From the NCBI GenBank assembly GCA_902791025.1, contig CADATZ010000001.1, forward strand, positions 434,001 through 498,000: a stretch of DNA of 64,000 nt, in the 5' to 3' direction. The position numbers and the translations under genes were made by a program. The notes under the pieces are model-generated. The model ran no database searches. It saw nothing but the letters and a program-made list of their open reading frames with translations, and was not told the DNA's origin. Position 1 is the first letter of the stretch, and each line of letters opens with the position of its first letter. This DNA comes from an uncultured Chloroflexota bacterium. Lineage in GTDB: Bacteria > Chloroflexota > Anaerolineae > Anaerolineales > Anaerolineaceae. Below, piece after piece: positions 12,633 to 62,146 of this stretch.

Positions 12633-12740
12633 CTCAAATTCTGATTAGTTAAGAAATTCAAATAATTGCTTTCAAATACCTCTTTTCTATTGGTATAATC
12701 AATGAGAAAGATTTATTTTTATCCTCAGGAGAGAATAATA

Positions 12741-15245
12741 ATGGAAGTTGATCCGAACAAACTGTTTTTGGGCAAACTGTATAACTCCGAAAACCAATTG
12801 ACCGAAGATAAAATGTATTACAACCCGTCGGATCTGAATACACATTGTGTGATCACGGGAATGACCGGTTCCGGCAAAACGGGGCTTGGTATTCTGATGC
12901 TGGAAGAAATCGCTCTTAGAAAGATTCCCGCTATTATTATCGATCCGAAGGGTGATTTGACCAACCTGCTCCTTCATTTTCCTGAAATAACGGGGAAGGA
13001 TATCGCCCCCTGGCTTGACCAGGAAGCTCCTGTACGCGAGGGAAAAGAACTATACGAATACGCAAATGAAAAAGCTGAGGATTGGAAAAAAGGACAAGCC
13101 TCATGGGGATACGGTCCGGAAGATATTGAAGCATTATCAGGCGTTGATTACACGATATTCACCCCGGGTTCTTCCATCGGGAATCCCATCAACATCATGG
13201 CGAGTTTTGCCGCCCCGGATTCATCTGTAATTTATAATGATGAGGCGATTCGTGAGGAGATTTCCACAGCCGTCACAGCACTGCTTGGTCTGCTCGGCTT
13301 CAGCAATATTGATCCCCTCAAAAGCAAAGAACATATTCTGCTCGCCAACATCATCGAATCCTACTGGACGCTGGGGAAGGATGTTACGTTAGTGGATCTC
13401 ATCAACGCGGTTAATGATCCGCCGTTTGATACATTAGGCGCGCTGCCCATTGACAAGATCTACCCGCCAAAGGAACGGTTCAATCTCGCACTGCAGATCA
13501 ACAATTTCCTTGCTTCTCCCACCTTCAAAGCCTGGAACGAGGGACCGGGACTTGATGTCGGAAGCCTGATCCACAACAAAGACAACAAACCGCGATTCAA
13601 CATCTTTTACATACAGCACTTGAGTGACCAGGAAAAGATGTTCTTTGTCACGATGCTGTATTCACAAATTGAGTCTTGGATGCGCAACCAGACCGGCACC
13701 GGCAATTTGCGCCTGGCGGTCTATTTTGATGAAATGGCCGGGTATGTGCCGCCAACTGCGAACCCATCCTCAAAGCCTGTCATTATGCGGATGATGAAAC
13801 AGGCTCGTGCCTTCGGGGTTGGCTTGATCCTGGCAACGCAGAACCCTGTTGATATCGACTATAAAGGCCTTTCCAATGCCGGGACCTGGTTTGTCGGGCG
13901 CTTGCAGACGGAACAGGACAAAAACCGTCTGCTCGACGGTCTCACTACGACAGATGGCAATATCAACCGCGCCAATGCCGATAAACTGATCTCAGACCTG
14001 AAAAAACGCGCCTTCCTTTACATGAATGTTCATGAAAGGGGCTTGAAGGTGATGACCACCCGATGGACCATGAATTACCTTGCGGGTCCGCTCACTAAAA
14101 ACCTGATCCCGAAGCTGTATAATGAAGGGTTGTGCATACCCTACACCGAAGAAGACGCAAAAGCCGCCAGGTTACTCGCGGCAGGTAAAACCACAGAGGC
14201 TGAGGATGATTCGGAATTGAACCTTATTACAGGAGATCCTGAAGAAATCAACGACAGCTTAAAGGAGAGTGAAAATATGGAAGAAGAATTGAAAGAAGGA
14301 CAACGTCCGAAAATCGCGGCCACGATCAACGAATATTTCATGCCCGCGGAAAAATGCCCTGCGGAATGTGATTCCGACGGTGAACAGGTCACTTATATTC
14401 CTGTCTGGATCGCCCAGGCTGAGATCCGTGCCGAAAAGGAAAAATATAATTTCTCCCTCAGCACTGTCAAGGCTGCTGAAATCGCGGATGATGACCTTCG
14501 CGGCACTACTGTCCGCTGGGATGACTATATGTGTGATCCTTTTGACATCAAAGCATTGATGACACGGCCTGAATTCAATGATGCTTATTATCAGATGCCT
14601 CCGGCCTGGATGCAGGATGCAAAAACTGCCCGCACCTATGAAACTGACTTTGTCAACTACCTCTATCGTGATGCCAGCATTACGGTCTGGGGCAACGAAA
14701 AGCTTGGCGTTTTCGCTGATGAAGACGACACGGAAGACGATTTCCTTGACAAATGCAAAGATAAAATCGAGGAATTAAGTTCGGTCGAAATTGAGAAGAT
14801 CAAGAAAACCCATGAAGCGCAGCTGGATAAACTCGAAGCGAAACTGAAGAAACTCAACGTCACTCTGGAAGACAAACAAAACCAGGTCAAACAACGCGGC
14901 GTTCAAACCGTTGCGGCTGCCGGTGAGCTGATCCTTTCCCTGATCCAGAGAAGAAAGAAATCCGTCTCCAGCTCTTTGACAAAGGTCAACCAGACTTCCA
15001 CAGCGAAAAAGGCTCAGGAAAAGGTCGAGCTTGAGATCGAAGCTGTAACGGATCAGATTCAGGATGCTATTGACAACTACGAAGCAAAACTTGAAGAGAT
15101 CCAGGAAAAGTGGGATAAGATTCTTGATCAGAACAAACAGATCAAGATCACTGTCGCCAAGAAAGACATCTTTGTCGACGCTTTCGGCATTTGCTGGACA
15201 CCTTATTACACCAACAGCCTTGGTAAACTGGTAAAAGCTTTCTAA
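12741..15245 (+). CDS. HerA/DUF87-like ATPase with C-terminal coiled coil
   Basis: AAA-type ATPase of the HerA-FtsK superfamily, 834 residues from the chosen ATG. AGGAGAG lies 7 bases before base 12741; an upstream in-frame ATG at 12702 lacks an SD. Walker A is GMTGSGKTG near residue 40, Walker B is VYFDEMAGYVP near 335, and the Gln-bearing LATQNPVDID motif near 370 resembles the sensor segment of this group. A Lys/Glu-rich coiled coil fills about 670-800. Proteins like this are usually annotated only as ATP-binding protein; known relatives process or translocate DNA. No nuclease partner (NurA) is nearby. Confidence 0.8.
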   Translation: MEVDPNKLFLGKLYNSENQLTEDKMYYNPSDLNTHCVITGMTGSGKTGLGILMLEEIALRKIPAIIIDPKGDLTNLLLHFPEITGKDIAPWLDQEAPVREGKELYEYANEKAEDWKKGQASWGYGPEDIEALSGVDYTIFTPGSSIGNPINIMASFAAPDSSVIYNDEAIREEISTAVTALLGLLGFSNIDPLKSKEHILLANIIESYWTLGKDVTLVDLINAVNDPPFDTLGALPIDKIYPPKERFNLALQINNFLASPTFKAWNEGPGLDVGSLIHNKDNKPRFNIFYIQHLSDQEKMFFVTMLYSQIESWMRNQTGTGNLRLAVYFDEMAGYVPPTANPSSKPVIMRMMKQARAFGVGLILATQNPVDIDYKGLSNAGTWFVGRLQTEQDKNRLLDGLTTTDGNINRANADKLISDLKKRAFLYMNVHERGLKVMTTRWTMNYLAGPLTKNLIPKLYNEGLCIPYTEEDAKAARLLAAGKTTEAEDDSELNLITGDPEEINDSLKESENMEEELKEGQRPKIAATINEYFMPAEKCPAECDSDGEQVTYIPVWIAQAEIRAEKEKYNFSLSTVKAAEIADDDLRGTTVRWDDYMCDPFDIKALMTRPEFNDAYYQMPPAWMQDAKTARTYETDFVNYLYRDASITVWGNEKLGVFADEDDTEDDFLDKCKDKIEELSSVEIEKIKKTHEAQLDKLEAKLKKLNVTLEDKQNQVKQRGVQTVAAAGELILSLIQRRKKSVSSSLTKVNQTSTAKKAQEKVELEIEAVTDQIQDAIDNYEAKLEEIQEKWDKILDQNKQIKITVAKKDIFVDAFGICWTPYYTNSLGKLVKAF

Positions 15246-15260
15246 GATCAGACTTATTAG

Positions 15261-15300
15261 AACCGGGCGTATGAGAAAATCATGACGCCCGGTTTTGTTT
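15261..15300 (+). terminator. Rho-independent terminator after the HerA-like gene
   Basis: Perfect 10-bp stem AACCGGGCGT (15261-15270) with ACGCCCGGTT (15285-15294), followed by TTGTTT. It lies 15 bases after the stop codon. Confidence 0.85.
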
Positions 15301-15322
15301 GCACTTTTTCATATGGGGAAAA

Positions 15323-16057
15323 ATGTACACATACCTGCCGGCACTCAACACAGTTCAGAACAGTAAAAAGAATAAATCGATTAAACAGTTTATAAAATCA
15401 ATTAAACTGAATTGTCTTACGCATTTCACCCGTATGGATAATTTGAAATCCATCCTGCAATCAGGAATCCTTCCCTCACGAATTTTGAGGAACAACAAAA
15501 CCTTTGAAGCCGTGGAGAAGAATTCAATTACACTTCCTCCGGAGTGGGTCGATTTTGTTTCGCTGAACCTGTCATTTCCTGATTACAAGCTTTTCAGCGA
15601 CCTCAACAATCATATGCCCAGTGACTGGGTGATCCTGACAATCGATCCGAGAGTCCTTTCTGATTTTCCCTGTTATTTTTTCCCCGAACGTGCCATAAAT
15701 ATTATTAAAACAGCTTCTCAGCCCAATCTGTTTTTGTCAGAATATCAAAATATCACTGACCTGAAAAAGCTATTCAAAGACAGGGAAGATGCAAAACGGA
15801 AAGATCTGGATATACCCCCGTTTTACCCTACTGATCCTACCAGCGAGGTTCTCTCTCTTTTCCCAATCGCACCTTCCTATATCACACAGGTTTTTTTTCA
15901 CAGCGACTATAAATTCAATCAATGGGTCCTTCACAACACTGAATTTGCCATGACACAGGACCGTTCCCGCTGGGCAGTCGGTCTTGAATACTTCTCTCCA
16001 AGAGCAGATTATCCCTTTTGGAAGACAAACCGAAGCATTGTGAAAAAAGCTGACTGA
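15323..16057 (+). CDS. DarT-like ADP-ribosyltransferase (DUF4433 family)
   Basis: The fold markers of DarT-type thymidine-DNA ADP-ribosyltransferases are visible. LTHFTRMDNLKSILQSGILPS (near 31-51, positions 15413-15475) is the NAD-pocket start with its His. VSLNLSFPDYKLF and WVILTIDPRVL follow in the middle. YPTDPTSEVLSLFPI near 172-186 carries the likely catalytic Glu of the PxxEVL motif. In known pairs DarT marks single-stranded DNA on thymidine and the macrodomain DarG reverses it. No DarG-like gene is adjacent; the 71-residue neighbour has no macrodomain. The start is set at ATG 15323 with a weak GGGGA upstream. The family call comes from motif recognition, not a search. Confidence 0.7.
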   Translation: MYTYLPALNTVQNSKKNKSIKQFIKSIKLNCLTHFTRMDNLKSILQSGILPSRILRNNKTFEAVEKNSITLPPEWVDFVSLNLSFPDYKLFSDLNNHMPSDWVILTIDPRVLSDFPCYFFPERAINIIKTASQPNLFLSEYQNITDLKKLFKDREDAKRKDLDIPPFYPTDPTSEVLSLFPIAPSYITQVFFHSDYKFNQWVLHNTEFAMTQDRSRWAVGLEYFSPRADYPFWKTNRSIVKKAD

Positions 16058-16085: not shown

Positions 16086-16301
16086 TTATTGTTTTTTCTC
16101 TTCCTGGCTGTGTTGTTTGATCAAATTTTCAGCTTCTTCTTTTGATAATTCCGTCAGGCTCATATTTCCCGACATGAAACGGTAACGAAGGTGAGGGGCT
16201 GGTTCCCAGGTGTTGTTTTTACCCATTTTTTCAATAAGATCTCCGCTTCTCCGAACGATTACGTCTCCAATATCAAAACGATAATATTTTGTTTCTTCCA
16301 T
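16086..16301 (-). CDS. Small hypothetical protein
   Basis: 71 residues, charged, no membrane segment or signal peptide, with a Lys/Glu/Gln-rich tail. Not recognised. It is convergent with the DarT-like gene (28-base gap) and lies 76 bases downstream of the exported RelA/SpoT-like gene on the same strand, so it could be the last gene of that run. It is not a macrodomain, so it is not a DarG-type antitoxin. Confidence 0.55.
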   Translation of the reverse strand: MEETKYYRFDIGDVIVRRSGDLIEKMGKNNTWEPAPHLRYRFMSGNMSLTELSKEEAENLIKQHSQEEKKQ

Positions 16302-16377: not shown

Positions 16378-17124
16378 TCATTTATCCTGCTGTATGACCC
16401 AAACATATTCCGGTGAGCCTTCAGGGACGGGAACTTTGGCATAAATTTCTTTTGCGTATGCTTCTGCTGCTATTCTTTCTTCTTCTGTGGCAGTTTCACT
16501 GCGTGCGATTTCATAGTTCGCGTGTTCAAGCTCTTTTGCTTCAAAAGATGCAGGTGTGTGAAGCTGGAGTTCAAAAAGAAAACCATCCGCGGTTGTCAGG
16601 TTCATATTGATTCCTTTATACCCATCACCGCCCCATCTGTTTTTGAATTTTACAACTTTGATATGGTTTTCCTCAAGAGTCCGCAGCGATTTGTCTACGA
16701 TGGGGATATATTGATCTTCATCGATGCATAATGTATAGCGAAGTACATCTCCAATCGTCCCCGCAGCCTCTTCCGGAGTAACTTCCATGTCATGGGCATC
16801 TGTCAGGATTTTTCTGGTAAGGCTTTCCTTCGATTTGATACGATGTTCCAACCCCACAAGTCTGGCGTTTTCTGATTCAAAGGAGAGCAGCAATGCTGTA
16901 ACTTCCGGTTCAGCCCGGACAGCTGCTTCAATCAATTCATCAGCCAGTTTTTCAGCGATGCTCTGCTCAGAGATGTCTTCCTGACCAGCATTATCAGCAC
17001 CTACTGCCGTCTCCTCTTTTTGAGGCAGCACTTCTGCAAAACAAATGTTTGCGGTTGCTTCACTTATGCTCAATAGTATCAAAAGCAACCCAATAAATGT
17101 TCTGAAAGATTTTTTTGTTCTCAT
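16378..17124 (-). CDS. Exported RelA/SpoT-like nucleotidyltransferase-fold protein
   Basis: An N-terminal signal peptide (charged MRTKK, hydrophobic core to about residue 22, likely cleavage after an Ala near 30) is followed by a Glu-rich linker and a single RelA/SpoT-like domain. Motifs: LTRKILTDA near 103, TIGDVLRYTLCIDEDQYIP near 122-140, FKNRWGGDGYKGINMNL near 159-175, and FELQLHTPASFEAKE near 182-196. They match the synthetase core (RYT, YKGIN, ExQxHT) and most resemble the secreted ATP 3'-pyrophosphokinases of Streptomyces. There is no HD hydrolase, TGS or ACT domain. It is the last large gene of a four-gene minus-strand run, 16 bases after the esterase-like gene. Enzymatic activity is inferred. 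Confidence 0.72.
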   Translation of the reverse strand: MRTKKSFRTFIGLLLILLSISEATANICFAEVLPQKEETAVGADNAGQEDISEQSIAEKLADELIEAAVRAEPEVTALLLSFESENARLVGLEHRIKSKESLTRKILTDAHDMEVTPEEAAGTIGDVLRYTLCIDEDQYIPIVDKSLRTLEENHIKVVKFKNRWGGDGYKGINMNLTTADGFLFELQLHTPASFEAKELEHANYEIARSETATEEERIAAEAYAKEIYAKVPVPEGSPEYVWVIQQDK

Positions 17125-17140
17125 AATTATCAGTACCTTT

Positions 17141-19111
17141 CTATTCTAACACATGATCAACCAAACTCATTATTCCTGACAATCTGTCTTCGATTGTATC
17201 GCATATGAGTTTCTCATCCGTGACAATAAGCGTCTGAGGATATGATTTCCAATCAAAAGCATCTACACCCTTGATCTCATTATGATACAGCTGCAAGGGT
17301 TCCTCTTTTATAAATTTTTGTAAAAGGTTCTGAAGCATTTCAGACAGATCTTTATTCATCACACTGCCATACATCTCTGCGGCTTCAGTGTTTCCGAGCA
17401 ACATTGCCGACGCGTCGACTGTACCAGACCCAAGCTTTTCGATCAACGGTTTTTGATCCCAGTACATAAGATGGACCTTATTTCCGCCCTCCGAGAGTTT
17501 TACCGCAACGCGATAAACGCAGGCCATGAGAAACTGCTCAACAAGTTTCGATTGTGCTTCGAGCTCAGTTGATGACGCTTTCTGCGCTTCAATATACGCG
17601 TTAATGTCATTGCTTATCGATTCATCTTTGCTATTCCGCAGGTTCGTTATCCCTATGGATATTATATCCTCGTAATTCCGGTCACCTACAACGGAGCGGT
17701 AAACCTGCGTTTCATTTCCCGGAATGCCAATGATAAACTCAATGCCTGATGCAGCTCCATTTTGAAAAGCACGATACAAATCAATCGGAAGCCATTCCCC
17801 GTCGCAGGTGGGTGCGCACATGTTTTGCCAAAGCTTTTGTGCCGCATCTTTGAGAGATTCCGTATCAAGCTTCATAAGCTCAGCCATTGACGTAGTTTGT
17901 GTCTCTTTCAGCAGGTTCTTTGCTAAAGTTCTGGCCCCATCCGGTGTGTCATATACGGACATTGGGCTGCCGTTAAATACAAAAGCTTTTTGGAACAGAT
18001 CTTTCCCCTGTCCGCTGGCCGCAAGAAGAAGGATGGAGGTTGCACCGGATCCAAAACCAAGCACTGTGATCCGGTCTGGATCGCCTCCAAATGCAGCGAT
18101 ATTTTCCCTGATCCATCTCAATGCCGCCACCTGATCCAACAGACCCAGGTTCAGGGTATCAGGACAGGCCTCTCCGCCGGGAACTTCTGAGAAATCTATA
18201 AAACCGAAAATGCCAAGACGATAGTTAAAGCTTACGAAAACGATATCCTGATGATCATTTACAAAATTTGAGCCGTACATCAAGGGATCAGCGGAACCGC
18301 CGTAAGTAAAATCACCATGATGAAACAACACAAGAACCGGTTTTTTCTTATTCGACTTTTTGGCACCAATACAGACATTTAAACTGAGACAATCCTCGCT
18401 TTGCCTGTGATTTTTCAGGATCGAGCCATTAAGTTCTACCTGTATAGCAGATGGACCGAAGCTTTTTGCTTCAAATACGGCATCTGAAGCGGGCAGCGGT
18501 TCTGGCGCTTTCCATCTGAGTTCGCCAACCGGCGGTTTTGCGTAAGGAACTCCCAAAAAGTATATGGTATTTTTATATTTATTCCCGATGTAGGTGCCGG
18601 TTTTTGTCTTGACAGAATAATTTGCATCGTATTCACCCTCTATAGTCCGATTTTGCTGGTTTAAACCTTCAATATCCTCCTTTTTGACATCGAAGACAAA
18701 CCCTTGATTTCCATCTCCATAAAGCTTGCGGATTTTTTGAACACGATACCAACGGATGATCAAATTCACGATAAAGCCAAGAATGGGGAAGCCAACAACA
18801 TAGATGAGCTGTTCTTTTACATTATCGATCATTGAAACGCCAAGGCGTGAAACCGATATATATTGGGCAATCAGAAAAATGAGAAAAATCGTGACATAGG
18901 TTATGATCCGATTTATTGGCTTTTTCTGGATGGATTTGCTGAAGGCTATTTTGCTTACAATTGATTCTACAACAAGTCCGAGAACGAAGCTTGCCGCCAT
19001 GCAAAGTGGTTCAGGCCAGCCTGAAAGCTTCGAAATTGTCGCGCCAAAGCCATAGCCAAGCGCCGATACAAACGCAACGGCAATATCATCGATCGTAAAT
19101 AGTTTTTTCAT
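17141..19111 (-). CDS. Membrane-anchored carboxylesterase-fold protein lacking the catalytic residues
   Basis: Four hydrophobic segments occupy the first 120 residues, followed by a type B carboxylesterase domain from about 160 to the C-terminus. The fold landmarks are clear: YFLGVPYAKPPVGELRW, SEDCLSLNV, VFVSFNYRLGIFGF, and LGLLDQVAALRWIRENIAAFGGDP. The catalytic parts are altered. The usual GESAG elbow reads GFGSGA, so the nucleophile Ser is Gly. The oxyanion HGGGF reads HHGDF. The His segment reads DASAMLLGN with no His. It is therefore likely a non-hydrolytic binding protein, as in neuroligin-type cholinesterase folds. It lies between the acetolactate decarboxylase and the RelA-like gene. 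Confidence 0.8.
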   Translation of the reverse strand: MKKLFTIDDIAVAFVSALGYGFGATISKLSGWPEPLCMAASFVLGLVVESIVSKIAFSKSIQKKPINRIITYVTIFLIFLIAQYISVSRLGVSMIDNVKEQLIYVVGFPILGFIVNLIIRWYRVQKIRKLYGDGNQGFVFDVKKEDIEGLNQQNRTIEGEYDANYSVKTKTGTYIGNKYKNTIYFLGVPYAKPPVGELRWKAPEPLPASDAVFEAKSFGPSAIQVELNGSILKNHRQSEDCLSLNVCIGAKKSNKKKPVLVLFHHGDFTYGGSADPLMYGSNFVNDHQDIVFVSFNYRLGIFGFIDFSEVPGGEACPDTLNLGLLDQVAALRWIRENIAAFGGDPDRITVLGFGSGATSILLLAASGQGKDLFQKAFVFNGSPMSVYDTPDGARTLAKNLLKETQTTSMAELMKLDTESLKDAAQKLWQNMCAPTCDGEWLPIDLYRAFQNGAASGIEFIIGIPGNETQVYRSVVGDRNYEDIISIGITNLRNSKDESISNDINAYIEAQKASSTELEAQSKLVEQFLMACVYRVAVKLSEGGNKVHLMYWDQKPLIEKLGSGTVDASAMLLGNTEAAEMYGSVMNKDLSEMLQNLLQKFIKEEPLQLYHNEIKGVDAFDWKSYPQTLIVTDEKLICDTIEDRLSGIMSLVDHVLE

Positions 19112-19153: not shown

Positions 19154-19996
19154 TCAGCCTTCCCCTGTTTCGACTTTCTTGATGTCTTCACTTTGATCGA
19201 TGGTGAGATCAAAGTTGTTAAACATCTCATTGTCAGGGAGCACCATGGCAAAGTAATCAGACTGGTCGATACTTACCTCGATATCTTTGGCACTGAGGTT
19301 CAGTACATGACCTCCGGACTGTCTGTCATCCGAAATAAAATGGAAATGCCAGCCGACGGCATTCAAATCATTCATAAACTCCGGACAGTACAAACCTACG
19401 ACTGTCCCCTCAATATTTTCATAATCAAAGAAAGTCTGATCGGTTTCCAAAACAACTGCCAGCGGCTTATATGGCTTTTCCTGAGGAAGTTCACTTCTTA
19501 CCTGCATCGTATTGAAGACGCCTTCAACCTTGACCATATAAAAGCGGTTGTCACCGGTTTGACTGATTTTTTCGTTAAGCTTTTCTTTCAGTGTATTAAC
19601 GTTGTCTATACCACTGATTTGAATGTTTTCATCATTATCAAAAAATGTAACATTTGAAAAGGGAATCGTCTCTTCATCCGCAACGACCTCAATCGTTCCA
19701 TCGTAGGCAGCCCTGTAAACAATGCCTTCAAGCATGATTAGTTCACCATTTAGAGCATCAAATGTACCGATGCCGGTATCACCGAGTTCTTTAAGCTGGG
19801 CAACGGAAACGCTTCCGTTGTAATCACCAAAAGTCAAACCCTGAAGAAGAGAAACCTGGTTGATCACATCCCTTTCTGCGGAACTGTTATCTGAAGTGGT
19901 TTGAGCATTAATACTGCTGAAAATAATAAAGAATAATGACATAGCTAAAAGGAGCGCATGTCCAAGAGATCGCTTTTCTGTAATAAAATGTTGCAT
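19154..19996 (-). CDS. Exported alpha-acetolactate decarboxylase
   Basis: A signal peptide (residues 1-31, hydrophobic core followed by SINAQ) precedes an acetolactate decarboxylase domain. The zinc motif WHFHFISDDRQSGGHVL near residues 215-231 supplies three His ligands. GELIMLEGIVYR near 84-95 carries the conserved Glu, and the VRSELP segment near 172 the substrate Arg. The enzyme turns acetolactate into acetoin. Most are cytoplasmic, but extracellular forms are known from Brevibacillus. No acetolactate synthase gene is nearby, which makes a standard butanediol role uncertain. It lies between the AMP ligase (97-base gap) and the esterase-like gene (42-base gap). Confidence 0.85.
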   Translation of the reverse strand: MQHFITEKRSLGHALLLAMSLFFIIFSSINAQTTSDNSSAERDVINQVSLLQGLTFGDYNGSVSVAQLKELGDTGIGTFDALNGELIMLEGIVYRAAYDGTIEVVADEETIPFSNVTFFDNDENIQISGIDNVNTLKEKLNEKISQTGDNRFYMVKVEGVFNTMQVRSELPQEKPYKPLAVVLETDQTFFDYENIEGTVVGLYCPEFMNDLNAVGWHFHFISDDRQSGGHVLNLSAKDIEVSIDQSDYFAMVLPDNEMFNNFDLTIDQSEDIKKVETGEG

Positions 19997-20093: not shown

Positions 20094-22481
20094 TTATTTG
20101 GCAGGTTTCTCGTCAGCCTTTTCAGCTTTTTTTTCTGCAGGTTTTTCAACCTTTTTCTCAGCAGGTTTTTCAGCCTTTTTTTCTTCAGCCTTTTCAGTGG
20201 CTTTTTCTTCAGCCTTCTTTTCAGCTTTCTTTTCAGCAGATTTTTCAGTCTTTTCAGCGTCATCTTCCTTATTGACGAACACTTTTTCGAACTGCTTCAT
20301 CATTTCTTTGTCCTGTTGGGCAGCTTGCTGAACCATAGATGTATGTTCCATGTAAAGCTGGGAAAGCATTGTTGCACCGGTCTGAGCCATCTGATTGAAA
20401 TAGGCTGCTGCCTGATTCATCTTCAGGTTCAAAACCTGTGCAGCCATCTGCTGCATGGCCTGGAAATTGGGCATCGGGAACGCGGGCATCGGTGTGTTTT
20501 CGTTGGCCTGGTTCATCCAGCCCATCGGATTGAAGGGCATAAATTGATTGGTATTCTTACTCATATTGTTCATCTCCATATTTGTATTTTGGTTTTTGAA
20601 TGAGAGACTGTCTTTCAGATCAGTCTTAATTCCATCAAATAGCTCCCTGATCATATCTGCAGATTTTTCTTCGCAGAGGACCAACAGGATATCGTTGAGA
20701 TTTCCTCCGAGCCGAACCGGCTTGATCTCGTACATATCGCCTTCTGCCTGACCTTGCGCGATACCGAACAAATCCAGTTTGCCGTTGGCATTTCGAGGCA
20801 GCTGCGGAGAAATAAGAACACGTGCCGGCAGGTTATCCGTTGAAAGTGTTTTTTCAGAAACAAAAACTGTTTGCAGAGCTTTGCGAACCGTGTCTATCGG
20901 TGACTTCTCATCGTTCAGCACCTGTACACAGAGCATCGGAATGTTGTCATGGTCATTTTTCATAAATACAGGTACGACACAGCAGCATTCGATACCGGAT
21001 TGACGGGCGATTTCGACTTCCACTTTCCCGGCCTCATAATTTCTGCCTTCCTGGTTAATGAAATATCGTCTTGCTCTGCCAAGGTAGGTGAGTTTTCCGG
21101 TTTTATCAAGGCTTACATAGTCATTCGTGCAGACAAATTTTTTGTCATCTATGGTTGTGAGTTTCAAAATTTCTCTGTCATCAAGCATTGGTGACGCACC
21201 TGATGGTGAGCTTAAATAAAGGATTCCCTCACAAGGCGCGTCTTCAAGTTTATAAAATTTATCGTCATCATCGTTATATAAGCGCAAGTCTACACCCGGC
21301 AGCAGATAACCGATAGCCTCATCATTCAGGTCTGGTGTGGAAAGGCAGCAGGCACCGCCCATTTCTGAAATGCCGTAGCCGTTCAGGAAAACGAAATTCT
21401 TACAGCCATGTTTTCGGAAAAATTCACTATACCGCTGTTTGTCCTTTGCGGAAACAGCAGCACCGCCGACCACAATACAGCGAAGGCTTGAGAAATCGAA
21501 TTTTGTATCCTCCGGCATTTTCATCCAGCCTTCGAATGCTGCACTGATTGCAAACAGGAATGTAATCTGAAATTCAGGAATCGCTTTATAAAAGTTTGGA
21601 TTGAGCATGCCTCCGGGAACTGTTGCAATGGTTCCGCCCAGGGCAAGGGGTACATGAACCTGGTCAATGATACCGTAGGAATTGCTCAAATCAACTGCCA
21701 ATCCGCTGGTCGGGTCTGACATGGCAAAGGATAATTGTGACAGTCTGGATAAAGAGACCGGAACAGCATTGAATGCTTTATCTGAGAGAACGACTGATTT
21801 TCCGACTCCGTTGGTTGTACCGGATGTATGCAGAATAAAAGCGCTGTCGCTGCTCTCTTCTTCTATATAATCAACCGGAACGGTGCCATAAGCCCCCAGG
21901 AGTGTTTCCATGCAAATCGGTCTGAACCAGGTTTTGAGATACATGTATTTTGCTTCCTGCGCGGCACGCATCGCGGCAGGTACAGCCGGACCGCCCGCCG
22001 GTATATGGAGCAAAATGATGTTGCGCAGTCCCAATTCACTTTTCCGTGAAAGCAGGTCGCTGATGAGATCAGGCATGGCAAAATCATCAGTGATGATAAA
22101 ATCAGTAAGATTTTCTTCTTTTATTGTATGTTTGAGACGTTTTGGCCTGAATGTTGTGTAAGGTGCAACAAAAGAAATCTCAGCGCCGACCATGTTCAGC
22201 GCATACATCACAAAGATGGTTTCCGCTGAGGCAGACCCCAGAACACCGACACGAGCGTTGTTTTCTCCGGTCATCCCGAGAGCTGTAAAAACCGAGGCGT
22301 ACCGATCCCATTGCCGGAACATCAGTCTGTAGGTATAGATATTCGTACCGTCTGTTATGGCAACGCGGTTTAATTGTTTCATGTCCTGGCTGTTCGCGTC
22401 CAGGATGAATTTCCACGCCTTTTGATTTTGATCTATTTGCAGCCCTGCTGATTGGGATAACTCAGGTAAAATGTCTTGCAT
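20094..22481 (-). CDS. AMP-dependent acyl/aryl ligase fused to a phasin/PhaF-like tail
   Basis: Residues 1 to about 570 form an adenylate-forming enzyme: P-loop motif ILHTSGTTNGVGKSVV near 220, NGYGISEMGG near 371, the GRARRYFINQEGRNYEAGKVE-type hinge, and a catalytic Lys in PRNANGKLD near 563. After a linker the frame continues into about 155 residues with a Met/Gln/Asn-rich amphipathic segment (near 640-720) and a low-complexity tail of EKKAEKPAEKK units. This layout resembles PhaF-type phasins. A TGGAG lies 9 bases before an in-frame ATG at base 20564, so the tail might also be made alone as a 156-residue protein. First gene of the minus-strand run. Confidence 0.8.
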   Translation of the reverse strand: MQDILPELSQSAGLQIDQNQKAWKFILDANSQDMKQLNRVAITDGTNIYTYRLMFRQWDRYASVFTALGMTGENNARVGVLGSASAETIFVMYALNMVGAEISFVAPYTTFRPKRLKHTIKEENLTDFIITDDFAMPDLISDLLSRKSELGLRNIILLHIPAGGPAVPAAMRAAQEAKYMYLKTWFRPICMETLLGAYGTVPVDYIEEESSDSAFILHTSGTTNGVGKSVVLSDKAFNAVPVSLSRLSQLSFAMSDPTSGLAVDLSNSYGIIDQVHVPLALGGTIATVPGGMLNPNFYKAIPEFQITFLFAISAAFEGWMKMPEDTKFDFSSLRCIVVGGAAVSAKDKQRYSEFFRKHGCKNFVFLNGYGISEMGGACCLSTPDLNDEAIGYLLPGVDLRLYNDDDDKFYKLEDAPCEGILYLSSPSGASPMLDDREILKLTTIDDKKFVCTNDYVSLDKTGKLTYLGRARRYFINQEGRNYEAGKVEVEIARQSGIECCCVVPVFMKNDHDNIPMLCVQVLNDEKSPIDTVRKALQTVFVSEKTLSTDNLPARVLISPQLPRNANGKLDLFGIAQGQAEGDMYEIKPVRLGGNLNDILLVLCEEKSADMIRELFDGIKTDLKDSLSFKNQNTNMEMNNMSKNTNQFMPFNPMGWMNQANENTPMPAFPMPNFQAMQQMAAQVLNLKMNQAAAYFNQMAQTGATMLSQLYMEHTSMVQQAAQQDKEMMKQFEKVFVNKEDDAEKTEKSAEKKAEKKAEEKATEKAEEKKAEKPAEKKVEKPAEKKAEKADEKPAK

Positions 22482-22709
22482 AATAGATGTTTTCCTTTTT
22501 GATTATTTTTTGATATCTGTTTTTACGTACTAAAACCCTTTAAATAAATTAAATCTGATACATCATAATTTATTTTAGGAAAATTTGCAAGATGATAGTT
22601 GAAAAATTATGTGTGACAATCTGGAACATCTCAAATAAATGGGTAAATGGTGTTTCGCTTTCTGTTATGGCAGCAATCATTGGTATAATAAATAGTTGGG
22701 AGATTGCTT

Positions 22710-25352
22710 ATGGATGCTATTAATGATATTAAAGTACTTGTAGCGGGAAAAAACTGGAAAAAGCTTACCGCCTTTTCCGTAATTATTTTATTATTAATTA
22801 CGGTAATTGTGTTTTTCATTTCCTTTGAATTGTGCAGGAATAACTATCTGAAACAGTTGGATGACTATCTCGATGAGATCCCGAAAATTGTCGATAATAC
22901 TCGGAATGAACTGGATATGCGCAGCCGCATTTTTCAAGAGGACGAGATCACCCGAGCGAAACTCGGATTGAAAATCTTCCTGGAAAACAATGGCAGTACG
23001 GAAGAAGAGCTCCTGGAGGAGGTACGCAATTCGATTTCCGCAGAAAGTGTATCCCTGCTGGATGAAAACAGAAAGTTGATTTCCACTACCGGTCCTGTAA
23101 TTCCGGAAAAAAATTTCAATGACATTATTCCAACACTTGAACCGGACGTTCCAGAACTGTTACTCTATACTACCACTTCTGAGGACCTGGAAGATACAGA
23201 AGAAGATGACGGCAAAAGTTTCGTGCTGGTTTCCGTACCTGGAAATACAAAACGCAGCCTGTTATTTGAATTCTCCTGCGAAGCGATACTGAAAATAGAA
23301 GAAGAACTGAAAGATTGGTCCAATATCCTTGGGAACATGATCCTTAAATCAGATTTTGCTATTGCCTTTGCTAAAACCGATGATAAGATTGTGGGCTTTC
23401 CGTTAGATGGCCTTGATCTTGAGAAGAACTCACCGCTTTATGAGGAACTTTCAAAGGTTTTCCAAAACAGCCGCAGTTTCCGAAAAACAAAGGATGGAAA
23501 TTACAACAAACTCATCAGATTGCAGGGGAAAAGTTACCTTGCGTCAATGATGCATTATCCACAGGAAAATGCGGATATTATTCTGGTTTTCCCCTTGCAC
23601 ATTGTAGAAAGGAATGGTTTTTTTATAGCAGCAGCTATTTCTGCTATTATCGGCTGGGGGATGCTGCTGATGCGGATTTATGTATACCGTTGCCTTTGCC
23701 ATGATGATGTCGTAAATGATCTGAAAACGATCAATCGCAAACAGATACTTCGGATAACCTGGCCGGGTATTCTGGTGATGATTTTGGTGACCGCCATCTT
23801 TTCAGCTTTGCTGCTCGTGCTGGAAATCAAGACGACCGAATCTTATACTGCTGCACTTAAAAGGGAAACCTTGCAGGCTGAGATCAATTTACGCAATAAT
23901 CAGAAAAAAACGATTCGCAGCACCTTCGAAACTTTTTATCAGACACACTCACAGATTATTGCGGATTACCTGATGAAAAATCCTGATCAGAAAACGTCTG
24001 AAGGGCTGTCAGAGCTCAACCGGATTTCAGGAACAGATTACCTGATGTGCTTTGACAAAACCGGCAAAGAATTCGCCTCATCCAACAGCTACACAGGTTT
24101 TATTGTCGGTGAAAACATGAGTGATGATTTTGAGCCGGTACTGCTTGGATATCCCTATGTGATCGTAGGACCTGATGAGGATCCTTACTCAGGAAAAATT
24201 GAGGTTGGTACCGCGATCATGATGACAGACGCGGAAGGGAAGCCGGATGGTTTCCTGTTGGCTGTCTATAGTGCCGAAGAACTGAATTCGGAACTGAAGA
24301 GAAAGAGCTATGAAAACACGGTCAATTCCTTTACCGTCCGGAATGGTTATGTTGCTGCTGCTGTCAACGCCGAGGACGGCATCTTTATAGCTCATACCGA
24401 TCCTGAAATGATAGGCCAAAAGGCTGTGAATTATATTGTGGACTATGAATCCGGCAAAAATTATGAAGGTTTCGTTGACTACAAAGGAAAAGAAATGGCC
24501 ATATCCGCGATTGCATCTGATGGAAAAACGCTCATGTTCATGGTACCTGATGGCTTGAATTACAACGAAAACTTAGGAATCCTTCCGACGATTCTGGCCG
24601 CTGCGATTCTGCTTTCAATGGTATTGGTGTATTATCCGAATGTATGCGTGTTGATGGCAAGGTCGATAAATGAGGCACAAAAAAATCTCCTGAATGATGC
24701 AAAGAAGGAAAGCGATATAAAGGTCTTTTATGATGGCTATGATGTTTTCCTGACCTTGTTTACATTTATTGTCTTGATTGCCACAACTAACGGCTGGTGT
24801 ACTTCATTTGATTATGTGCTCAACGGAAAATGGACCAAAGGGTTCCATATGTATTCCATCTGGGCGGCACTGTTCATCATTGTGTCCTTACTCTGTATCG
24901 GAATTTTATTCCAGTTTTTGTTGAACATTTTTGAGAAGCGGATCAGTCAGCGGGCTAAAACGATCACCAGATTGATTAAAAGTCTCGTTTCCTATACCGT
25001 AATACTCTTCCTTATCTTCACCATTCTTGACATATTTGGCGTGAACACCACTGCGATGCTGGCATCGGCCGGTATCCTTTCTCTTGCCATCGGTATGGGC
25101 GCCAAGAGTATGGCGGAAGATATGCTTGCCGGCTTTTTCATGATGACAGAGGGTACAGTCCATGTGGGGGATCATGTGAGTATCGGGAGAGACGTAACGG
25201 GCGTTGTTACCGATATGGGGATCCGAACCACGGAAATTACTGACAATGATGGAAATGTTGTGATCCTCAACAACAGCAAAGTCACCGGTGTACGCAACAT
25301 GAGCCGGAAACTGGAACAACCGGAATCAGAAAACGGCACAAAAAACGAATAA
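22710..25352 (+). CDS. MscS-family channel with two extracytoplasmic sensor regions
   Basis: 880 residues from ATG 22710 (GGGAG 7 bases upstream). Layout: membrane segment near 20-41; external region about 42-300; membrane segments near 302-325 and 351-373; second external region about 374-620, Cache-like, with TDYLMCFDKTGKEFASSNS; then at least five membrane segments; then the MscS pore helix and beta domain (AMLASAGILSLAIGMGAKS near 783-801, ending with DNDGNVVILNNSKV). The large alpha/beta vestibule normal in MscS is almost absent, as the protein stops about 20 residues after the beta domain. It may be a ligand- or tension-gated channel. Divergent from the AMP ligase gene. Confidence 0.82.
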   Translation: MDAINDIKVLVAGKNWKKLTAFSVIILLLITVIVFFISFELCRNNYLKQLDDYLDEIPKIVDNTRNELDMRSRIFQEDEITRAKLGLKIFLENNGSTEEELLEEVRNSISAESVSLLDENRKLISTTGPVIPEKNFNDIIPTLEPDVPELLLYTTTSEDLEDTEEDDGKSFVLVSVPGNTKRSLLFEFSCEAILKIEEELKDWSNILGNMILKSDFAIAFAKTDDKIVGFPLDGLDLEKNSPLYEELSKVFQNSRSFRKTKDGNYNKLIRLQGKSYLASMMHYPQENADIILVFPLHIVERNGFFIAAAISAIIGWGMLLMRIYVYRCLCHDDVVNDLKTINRKQILRITWPGILVMILVTAIFSALLLVLEIKTTESYTAALKRETLQAEINLRNNQKKTIRSTFETFYQTHSQIIADYLMKNPDQKTSEGLSELNRISGTDYLMCFDKTGKEFASSNSYTGFIVGENMSDDFEPVLLGYPYVIVGPDEDPYSGKIEVGTAIMMTDAEGKPDGFLLAVYSAEELNSELKRKSYENTVNSFTVRNGYVAAAVNAEDGIFIAHTDPEMIGQKAVNYIVDYESGKNYEGFVDYKGKEMAISAIASDGKTLMFMVPDGLNYNENLGILPTILAAAILLSMVLVYYPNVCVLMARSINEAQKNLLNDAKKESDIKVFYDGYDVFLTLFTFIVLIATTNGWCTSFDYVLNGKWTKGFHMYSIWAALFIIVSLLCIGILFQFLLNIFEKRISQRAKTITRLIKSLVSYTVILFLIFTILDIFGVNTTAMLASAGILSLAIGMGAKSMAEDMLAGFFMMTEGTVHVGDHVSIGRDVTGVVTDMGIRTTEITDNDGNVVILNNSKVTGVRNMSRKLEQPESENGTKNE

Positions 25353-60369: not shown

Positions 60370-61359
60370 TCATTTGAGTATACAAAGAATTTCTCCGGCG
60401 TCTCCGTGAATACAGACAGACTGATGTTCTATCTCTTTGGGACATACTGCTTCGTCATAATTCAGGCAGGCATAAAAGGCCTGACTGTTGTCTCTCGTCA
60501 TCTGCCAGAAAGGATACTTAATAATCACCGGCGTATTTGCTCCTACGCCGATTTCCAGATACAGCACATGCAGATTTTTGTGTCTGCGAAGGAAATCGGA
60601 ATACGCAGCCGACGCCTTATGCCATCCTGTATCCTCAACAAAGGTATCGTCCGAACGAAGATTCATCGTGACCGGATCGCCATTGGGATCAGTGGGGATC
60701 AATTCTGTCGGCAGCTGCATGGAAATATTACCGTTCTCCGGAATTTGGAAAATGCCAGCTTCATCTCGGACAAAGCCCTGGGCTTCCATGGCCAGCATCG
60801 TCCACTCCTCGTTATCGTAGGTTTCCTGCACCTTTGAATCAACGCTTTGGAACAGACCGTAGTCTCCCTGTGTATAGAACAGCCGCTTTTTGTCGAAGCC
60901 CGCACTCTGAAACTGGTGATCCACATTCGTTGTAATCACGAAGTAGTCTTTGCCATCAAGCAATTGAAGAAGCTGAGTGTAAACAGGCTTCGGAGCGGGA
61001 ATATATCGGTTGAAGTAAATGTGTCTTGCCCAATAGGCCCATGTCACCTCAGGCGCTGCTTGCATCACCACAAAGCCACCGGTGTACATATCGTGAAATC
61101 CGAATGCTTCTTCAAAATCGGAAAAATACCTTTTGAAACGATCCCCGGAGTAAGTAAAACCTGCCGCCGTGGAGAGCCCTGCTCCTGCTCCGACAACAAT
61201 AGCATCCGCTGTTTCGAGTTCCTTTTTCAGCCTTGCAATCTTCTCCTCATGTGTCCCGATCCCATGTGAAACGCGAAGGTCATAAGTACGCACGGCAAGA
61301 AGGCCTTTATGTATCGATTCCAGATAGCCGTTTGGCTGATCAGTGTAATAGTTCTTCAT
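60370..61359 (-). CDS. Class M sirtuin (SirTM-like, macrodomain-linked)
   Basis: 329 residues from ATG 61359 (GAGG 12 bases upstream; an in-frame ATG at 61389 would add ten residues). The NAD-binding Rossmann core has VVGAGAGLSTAAGF near 56-69 and TTNVDHQFQSAG near 143-154. Where classical sirtuins have the catalytic ELHG, this protein reads TQGDYG, so Gln replaces His, as in class M sirtuins. The four-Cys zinc ribbon of classical sirtuins is missing. SirTMs in staphylococci and streptococci act as protein ADP-ribosyltransferases on the lipoylated carrier GcvH-L. The upstream macrodomain gene overlaps by 20 bases. Confidence 0.85.
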   Translation of the reverse strand: MKNYYTDQPNGYLESIHKGLLAVRTYDLRVSHGIGTHEEKIARLKKELETADAIVVGAGAGLSTAAGFTYSGDRFKRYFSDFEEAFGFHDMYTGGFVVMQAAPEVTWAYWARHIYFNRYIPAPKPVYTQLLQLLDGKDYFVITTNVDHQFQSAGFDKKRLFYTQGDYGLFQSVDSKVQETYDNEEWTMLAMEAQGFVRDEAGIFQIPENGNISMQLPTELIPTDPNGDPVTMNLRSDDTFVEDTGWHKASAAYSDFLRRHKNLHVLYLEIGVGANTPVIIKYPFWQMTRDNSQAFYACLNYDEAVCPKEIEHQSVCIHGDAGEILCILK

Positions 61360-62146
61360 AGTATGCTTTATCCTCGTCTTTGAATACATTGAAAATCACC
61401 CGATCAATCCGTTCTTTGTGTTCGTCCAGCCATTTGCTTACGGTATCGACCGCTATTTCCGCCGCGCGTTTATTCGGGAATCGGAACACTCCTGTGGAGA
61501 TGCAGCAGAACGCTACGCTTTGCAGGCCGTTCTCCGCGCATAGGTCGAGCGTATTCCGGTAACAATTCGCCAAATCCTGTTCCAGTGCCGTTGTCAGCCG
61601 CCCCTCAACAATCGGGCCGACAATATGAACAACCTTCTTCGCCGGCAGGTTATAGCCGTCTGTCAGCATGGGAACAGCAGTCGGTTGTTCATAATCTCTG
61701 CCATAGCGGACACGAAGCTGATTCATCTGTCGATTGCATTCAGCTCGAAGCTGTACACCGGCAAAGGTGTGAATGCAATTGTCGATGCAGGTGTGCATCG
61801 GGACAAAGCAGCCGAGCATCTGCGAATTGGCGGCGTTCACAATAGCGTCAACGGCAAGGCGGGTGATATCACCCTGCCAGATAGACATCCCGTCCTTAAT
61901 CTCCGGAATATCCGAAAGGCCTACGACGCCTTTTTCACGGATACGCTCCCGCAGGTATTCATCCTGCACGGCCAGTACCGAATCGTCCAACTTCTTCGGC
62001 ATACGAATGTTCATCAGGGAACGCAGGATTCGTCTTTTATTCTCGTTATCCTCCGGCGTTTTTAAATCCTTATATTGAACGGAATCGGCCTTAAACGCTT
62101 CAACCAGCGTGTCAAGCCGCTGCTCCTGTGTCATTTTCTCAGTCAT
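61340..62146 (-). CDS. Zinc-type macrodomain ADP-ribosylhydrolase linked to SirTM
   Basis: 268 residues: a helical N-terminal extension (about 1-85), then the macrodomain. ADP-ribose contacts are visible in WQGDITRLAVDAIVNAANSQM near 90-110 and SVAFCCISTGVFRFPNKRAA near 214-233. The loop after NAANS holds C113, H118 and C120 (GCFVPMHTCIDNCIHTFAG), the Cys/His set of the zinc-containing macrodomains that accompany SirTM. These remove ADP-ribose added by SirTM. It starts 4 bases after the PNPOx-ferredoxin stop and overlaps SirTM, so the three genes form one unit. Confidence 0.88.
   Translation of the reverse strand: MTEKMTQEQRLDTLVEAFKADSVQYKDLKTPEDNENKRRILRSLMNIRMPKKLDDSVLAVQDEYLRERIREKGVVGLSDIPEIKDGMSIWQGDITRLAVDAIVNAANSQMLGCFVPMHTCIDNCIHTFAGVQLRAECNRQMNQLRVRYGRDYEQPTAVPMLTDGYNLPAKKVVHIVGPIVEGRLTTALEQDLANCYRNTLDLCAENGLQSVAFCCISTGVFRFPNKRAAEIAVDTVSKWLDEHKERIDRVIFNVFKDEDKAYYEELLH

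What the first reader, a model, noticed from the sequence alone, without database searches (positions are those of the whole stretch)
16378..17124. Secreted RelA/SpoT-like alarmone-synthetase fold
The sequence shows a signal peptide followed by a lone synthetase-like domain with RYT, YKGIN and ELQLHT motifs and no hydrolase or regulatory domain. Known relatives are the extracellular ATP 3'-pyrophosphokinases of Streptomyces and some toxin domains. An exported form in a Gram-variable anaerobe, inside an operon with other exported proteins, is unusual. It could modify nucleotides outside the cell or act as a toxin against competitors.
Basis: partly seen in the sequence, partly recalled or inferred. 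Interest (0 to 1): 0.75.

Follow-up and report, generated by a model that had tools for sequence, protein, structure and literature searches.

The report
Secreted alarmone-making enzyme with immunity gene
A ruminant-gut Chloroflexota bacterium (near Flexilinea) carries a gene for an enzyme of the alarmone-making family that it apparently secretes, followed by a small gene related to known immunity proteins against such enzymes, which suggests a secreted toxin rather than only an extracellular signal.

Summary
In detail: window 16378-17124 (minus strand) encodes a 248-aa RelA/SpoT-type synthetase domain with an N-terminal signal peptide. It belongs with the exported alarmone synthetases (EAS) described in 2025 (PMC12691689). 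Its best structural match is SaEAS (8vx3, Z 21.3) and all six active-site residues are kept. The host is a Flexilinea-like Anaerolineaceae (Chloroflexota); its nearest relatives are ruminant-gut metagenome-assembled genomes (MAGs).

(1) The next gene, 71 aa (16086-16301, minus), lies directly downstream in all four genomes that have the enzyme. It is related to the IapK/Tis1 immunity proteins that neutralise toxic alarmone synthetases: profile-profile P 6.8e-6, 0 of 200 shuffles as good, and Tis1 (6ox6_B) is its best structural match, though weak (Z 4.7). SaEAS and VpEAS, the characterised Sec-exported members, lack such a gene. (2) In one relative the synthetase is fused behind an exported acetolactate decarboxylase, so export was kept through a second signal peptide.

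Best reading: a Sec-exported (p)ppApp/(p)ppGpp synthetase toxin with cognate immunity; the target is unknown. Product, neutralisation and entry into targets are inferred. This is a new variant of a known kind.

The parts
16378..17124 (-). Exported alarmone synthetase (EAS-type SYNTH domain, 248 aa)
17035..17124 (-). Signal peptide, residues about 1-30 (cleavage ATA|N at 25 or CFA|E at 30)
   Evidence: heuristic; a similar N-terminus in the G006 ortholog
16564..16749 (-). Catalytic core: D126, R129, K159, N173, E185, Q187, equivalent to SaEAS D121, R124, K154, N169, E182, Q184
   Evidence: alignment; SaEAS residues from PMC12691689
16086..16301 (-). 71-aa IapK/Tis1-like immunity protein candidate, no signal peptide
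17141..19111 (-). Membrane-anchored carboxylesterase-like protein, probably without esterase activity
   Evidence: GESAG Ser replaced in all three copies read
19154..19996 (-). Exported acetolactate decarboxylase (signal peptide; zinc-binding His residues kept); fused to the synthetase in relative G005
   Evidence: fusion
20094..22481 (-). AMP-forming acyl ligase with a Lys/Glu/Ala-rich tail; first gene of the same-strand run

Best explanation
The gene encodes a Sec-exported small alarmone synthetase of the EAS/Apk type that transfers pyrophosphate from ATP to the 3'-OH of purine nucleotides, making (p)ppApp and/or (p)ppGpp. It is exported unfolded, by its own signal peptide here or by that of a fused acetolactate decarboxylase in a relative. 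The adjacent 71-aa protein stays in the cytoplasm and binds any synthetase that folds there or re-enters, blocking the acceptor-nucleotide site as Tis1/IapK do. The pair therefore most likely works as an exported toxin with cognate immunity in the gut community. Shown here: fold, active-site residues, signal peptide (heuristic), conserved gene pair, homology of the small protein to the IapK family, the ALDC fusion. Inferred: enzymatic product, neutralisation, and entry into target cells.
For: Fold and family: 8vx3 E 3e-18, Z 21.3, Foldseek E 1e-14. Active-site residues all kept in 21 sequences. The motifs RYT, GxN and QxH are the syn2/3/4 signatures that PMC12226406 lists for adenosine 3'-pyrophosphokinases against AVR, SxH and IR of (p)ppGpp synthetases. 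Immunity: a 71-aa gene directly downstream in all four genomes with the enzyme although the genes beyond it differ; MuF-phage Apk2 genes carry a 68-79-aa gene in the same place; hhalign of the two families P 6.8e-6, score 31.5 against shuffles of mean 10.3 and maximum 19.8; an HMM from the phage and enterococcal family alone ranks the 71-aa frame first among all frames of each of the four loci, E 0.0014-0.0075, and finds nothing in 4739 frames of the Streptomyces loci; best structural match Tis1, Z 4.7. IapK and BcTis1 neutralise Apk2 by occluding its active site (PMC12226406; PMC11699363), and Tis1-like domains inhibit (p)ppApp-making toxSAS at the acceptor site (PMC11782079). Export selected: the ALDC-synthetase fusion keeps a signal peptide.
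Against: No assay. SaEAS has the same motifs and prefers guanylate acceptors, so the motifs do not fix the product. Tis1 itself is not found by sequence and Z 4.7 is weak on its own. No (p)ppApp hydrolase (Aph1) gene is adjacent, unlike the phage loci. How a Sec-exported enzyme would enter another cell is unknown; SaEAS showed no effect on the bacteria tested (PMC12691689). The four genomes are close relatives and share other private genes, so co-occurrence alone proves little.
Confidence: 0.6

Rival explanations
1. Extracellular signalling or nucleotide-modifying enzyme as proposed for SaEAS: it converts nucleotides released by lysing cells into alarmones outside the cell. The 71-aa protein only protects against enzyme that folds before export.
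For: Closest solved relative is SaEAS, which works outside the cell with low Km and no detected killing (PMC12691689); the Sec route puts the enzyme where nucleotides are scarce but present after lysis.
Against: SaEAS and VpEAS manage without an immunity gene (PMC12691689; no IapK-like frame in 26 Streptomyces loci), whereas here one is kept beside the enzyme in four of four genomes.
Confidence: 0.25
2. Exported toxin aimed at eukaryotic grazers (rumen ciliates) or the host epithelium, with the immunity protein guarding the producer, as for secreted NAD glycohydrolases with immunity factors.
For: Immunity proteins can accompany exported toxins that act on eukaryotes (discussed in PMC11699363); the nearest relatives come from goat and ruminant digestive tracts; PMC12691689 proposes action inside amoebae for SaEAS.
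Against: No translocation partner or eukaryote-targeting domain seen in the locus; no direct evidence.
Confidence: 0.1
3. The 71-aa gene is an unrelated conserved neighbour, and the similarity to IapK/Tis1 is chance convergence of short alpha/beta proteins.
For: Small proteins; sequence identity 15-28%; Tis1 not found by profile search of the PDB; PHROG 3514 (the phage family) does not match it at E 1.
Against: Three lines agree: position, profile comparison against shuffles, and blind rank first in all four loci, plus Tis1 as best structure match.
Confidence: 0.12

Closest known systems
SaEAS, exported alarmone synthetase of Streptomyces albidoflavus (PDB 8vx3; PMC12691689)
   Same: Sec signal peptide, single SYNTH domain of the same size and fold (Z 21.3), same six active-site residues, C-terminal VPVPxG motif
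   Different: About 30-36% identity; SaEAS has no immunity gene and is an isolated gene; here there is a five-gene run with an immunity-like gene, in another phylum, and a variant fused to ALDC
Apk2 with IapK and Aph1 (MuF phage polymorphic toxins; PMC12226406)
   Same: SYNTH domain about 37% identical to the streptococcal phage domains, RYT/GxN/QxH signatures, small immunity-family gene directly downstream
   Different: No MuF domain and no prophage genes beside it; a signal peptide or ALDC in place of the delivery domain; no Aph1 hydrolase gene beside it
Tas1/Apk1 with Tis1 (type VI effector of Pseudomonas aeruginosa; PDB 6ox6)
   Same: Same fold (Z 11.4) and a downstream protein whose best structural match is Tis1 (Z 4.7)
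   Different: No PAAR/type VI delivery; low sequence identity (24% over the structural alignment)
XopAD/skwp C-terminal domain (NCBIfam NF041399)
   Same: The synthetase domain matches the end of this model, E 1e-30
   Different: None of the very long SKWP-repeat N-terminus; 248 aa in all

Membership tests
Exported alarmone synthetase (EAS) | SYNTH fold of the RelA/SpoT superfamily | tested here: met
   Z 21.3 to 8vx3 over 197 residues; phmmer E 3e-18
Exported alarmone synthetase (EAS) | Active-site residues D, R, K, N, E, Q of SaEAS | tested here: met
   All six aligned and invariant
Exported alarmone synthetase (EAS) | Export signal (Sec signal peptide or secretion domain) | tested here: met
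   Charge, hydrophobic core and cleavage motif, heuristic only; second export route through ALDC in G005
Exported alarmone synthetase (EAS) | Makes (p)ppGpp and/or (p)ppApp | not testable with these tools
   needs an enzyme assay
Signal-peptide EAS as characterised (SaEAS, VpEAS) | No adjacent immunity gene | tested here: not met
   IapK/Tis1-like gene directly downstream
toxSAS of the Apk type with Tis1/IapK immunity | Small immunity-family gene directly downstream | tested here: met
toxSAS of the Apk type with Tis1/IapK immunity | Tis1-like fold of the small protein | tested here: inconclusive
   Tis1 ranks first of 989 chains but at Z 4.7; Foldseek had nothing at E 0.001
toxSAS of the Apk type with Tis1/IapK immunity | syn2 RYT, syn3 GxN, syn4 xH signatures | tested here: met
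   RYT 129-131, GIN 171-173, LH 188-189 (signatures)
toxSAS of the Apk type with Tis1/IapK immunity | Immunity protein neutralises the synthetase | not testable with these tools
   needs co-expression or binding assay
MuF polymorphic toxin Apk2 | N-terminal MuF capsid domain in a prophage, Aph1 hydrolase gene | tested here: not met
   Only a signal peptide precedes the domain; no HD hydrolase gene beside it
Long RSH (Rel/RelA/SpoT) | HD hydrolase, TGS, ACT domains | tested here: not met
   248 aa, none found; the genome has a separate 742-aa Rel and a small cytoplasmic-type synthetase
XopAD type III effector | Long SKWP-repeat N-terminus | tested here: not met
   matches only model positions 1934-2126 of 2133

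The most novel reading that the evidence does not exclude
A diffusible antibacterial alarmone-synthetase toxin that leaves by the general secretory pathway, is paired with a Tis1/IapK immunity protein, and in one lineage rides on an exported acetolactate decarboxylase as carrier domain: a delivery mode for this toxin class not reported in the papers found.
Probability: 0.35. Interest if true: 0.78.

Novelty: new variant of a known kind. Interest (0 to 1): 0.6.

Why it matters
The 2025 study of exported alarmone synthetases left open whether they act outside cells or re-enter cytoplasm, and noted that re-entry should require a cytoplasmic immunity protein, which it did not find beside the Sec-exported ones. 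This locus supplies a Sec-exported synthetase with such a gene next to it, so the question becomes directly testable. It also extends the class to Chloroflexota of the ruminant gut and shows the domain fused to an exported metabolic enzyme.

Tried and rejected
Pfam RelA_SpoT alone is below its cut-off, so it was not relied on. PADLOC gave nothing for the synthetase. A viral-contig scan with the Flexilinea/Streptomyces alignment found no relative; phage relatives came from other queries. Sequence searches of the PDB with the 71-aa family did not find Tis1; the hits of the phage-family profile to Kelch proteins are short repeats without a significant domain. Co-occurrence of the synthetase and the 71-aa gene (same 4 of 61 genomes) was first taken as strong evidence; it was discounted because the neighbouring MscS-type gene has the same four-genome distribution in the 21 genomes searched. 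Tree of the domain: Flexilinea, Streptomyces and MuF/Enterococcus sequences form three separate groups whose order is unresolved, so neither is shown to be the donor.

Full report
Observation. The ORF 16378-17124 on the minus strand encodes 248 aa. The match to Pfam RelA_SpoT is weak (E 0.11, below the cut-off), but phmmer finds the solved exported small alarmone synthetase of Streptomyces albidoflavus (8vx3) at E 3e-18, and NCBIfam places the domain at the end of the XopAD model at E 1e-30. An AlphaFold2 model (mean pLDDT 83, over 90 through most of residues 50-240) matches 8vx3 at Z 21.3 over 197 residues, then RelP/RelQ-type synthetases at Z 12-14 and Tas1 at 11.4. The six active-site residues named for SaEAS (D121, R124, K154, N169, E182, Q184; PMC12691689) correspond to D126, R129, K159, N173, E185, Q187 and are invariant in 21 sequences. 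The first 30 residues have the make-up of a Sec signal peptide (heuristic).

Host. The window lies in a 4.2-Mb genome. Only 4 of 14 genomes searched in that genus and none of 47 others in the family and order have the gene; of 400 genomes drawn from the phylum only the window's own has it. The genome also has a 742-aa Rel and a small synthetase without the exported type's motifs.

Locus. Five genes lie in one direction: AMP-ligase, exported acetolactate decarboxylase (ALDC), carboxylesterase-like membrane protein, synthetase, 71-aa protein, with gaps of 16 to 97 bases. G006 has the same order. G005 lacks the esterase at this place and has the ALDC and the synthetase as one 500-aa protein behind the ALDC signal peptide; the joint lies between the last residue of the stand-alone ALDC and the linker of the synthetase. 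G012 has AMP-ligase and esterase on one contig end and synthetase plus 71-aa gene on another, and no ALDC match in the genome. Thus the synthetase domain is exported by its own or by a borrowed signal peptide, which argues that export matters. The fusion rests on one MAG assembly, but the frame is open over 500 codons.

The 71-aa gene. It has no signal peptide, follows the synthetase in all four genomes, and is 81-83% conserved. Its model (pLDDT 80) has as best structural match 6ox6_B, Tis1, the immunity protein of the type VI effector Tas1 (Z 4.7, 62 residues, 23% identity). The score is weak, so I tested it by other means. MuF-phage relatives of the synthetase (Apk2) carry a 68-79-aa gene within 8 bases of their stop codon; in Enterococcus faecalis the same domain is fused to an HD hydrolase. 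Papers name this protein IapK or BcTis1 and report that it neutralises Apk2 by occluding its active site. The Flexilinea family against the 24 distinct downstream proteins gives hhalign score 31.5, P 6.8e-6; 200 column shuffles have mean 10.3, maximum 19.8; an earlier, smaller comparison aligned 61 columns at P 1.1e-4. An HMM built without any Flexilinea sequence ranks the 71-aa frame first among 770 frames of the window (E 0.0075) and first in the three other loci (E 0.0014-0.004), and finds nothing in 26 Streptomyces loci (best E 5.2 of 4739 frames). I conclude that it is a divergent member of the IapK/Tis1 immunity family (about 85% likely). The mere co-occurrence in the same genomes is confounded by relatedness, since a neighbouring channel gene shows the same pattern.

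Mechanism. Tis1-like domains inhibit the (p)ppApp-making synthetases by occupying the acceptor-nucleotide site, whereas tRNA-modifying ones are held by another domain type (PMC11782079). The presence of this family therefore points to a nucleotide-modifying synthetase. The syn2/3/4 motifs are of the adenosine-kinase type, but SaEAS has them too and prefers guanylates, so the product is open: (p)ppApp, (p)ppGpp or both. Because SaEAS and VpEAS, exported in the same way, have no immunity gene, the one here suggests that cytoplasmic activity, by leakage or by re-entry from kin, is a real threat; the simplest reading is an exported toxin with immunity. Action on eukaryotic grazers and purely extracellular signalling remain possible.

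Novelty. Exported alarmone synthetases and the Tis1/IapK immunity family are both known. The combination of Sec export with an immunity gene, the occurrence in Chloroflexota, and the fusion to ALDC were not found in the papers searched; supplementary sequence lists of PMC12691689 could not be read, so these proteins may be listed there without comment. Tree analysis leaves the Flexilinea group separate from both the Streptomyces and the phage group.

Noticed in passing
window 17141-19111 (-): Carboxylesterase-like membrane protein that lacks the catalytic Ser of GESAG (GFGSG here, GFDSG and GFESG in relatives) and apparently the catalytic His; probably a non-enzymatic, neuroligin-like use of the fold.
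   Followed up: partly
window 15299-16057 (+): DarT-like ADP-ribosyltransferase gene (PF14487, E 1.6e-6) converging on the immunity-like gene, without an adjacent macrodomain antitoxin; a HerA-like ATPase gene lies before it (12702-15245).
   Followed up: no
L032:6844-8718 (-), genome G013: Secreted fusion of a HAD-type phosphatase domain with acetolactate decarboxylase, a second fusion partner of the exported ALDC in this genus.
   Followed up: partly
L066:3595-4236 (+), Enterococcus faecalis plasmid LR962045.1: IapK/Tis1-like domain fused to an HD hydrolase domain directly after a synthetase gene, so both kinds of immunity are in one protein.
   Followed up: partly
L067:3590-3799 (+) and similar phage loci: PHROG 3514, listed as unknown function, is the IapK immunity family that follows MuF-Apk2 genes.
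   Followed up: partly
window 60370-62146 (-): Macro domain protein (PF01661, E 1e-31) next to a gene that looks sirtuin-like by eye (no Pfam match), resembling the bacterial sirtuin-macrodomain pair.
   Followed up: no
window 22704-25352 (+): MscS-type channel with an N-terminal Cache-like region, found only in the same four genomes of 21 searched.
   Followed up: no
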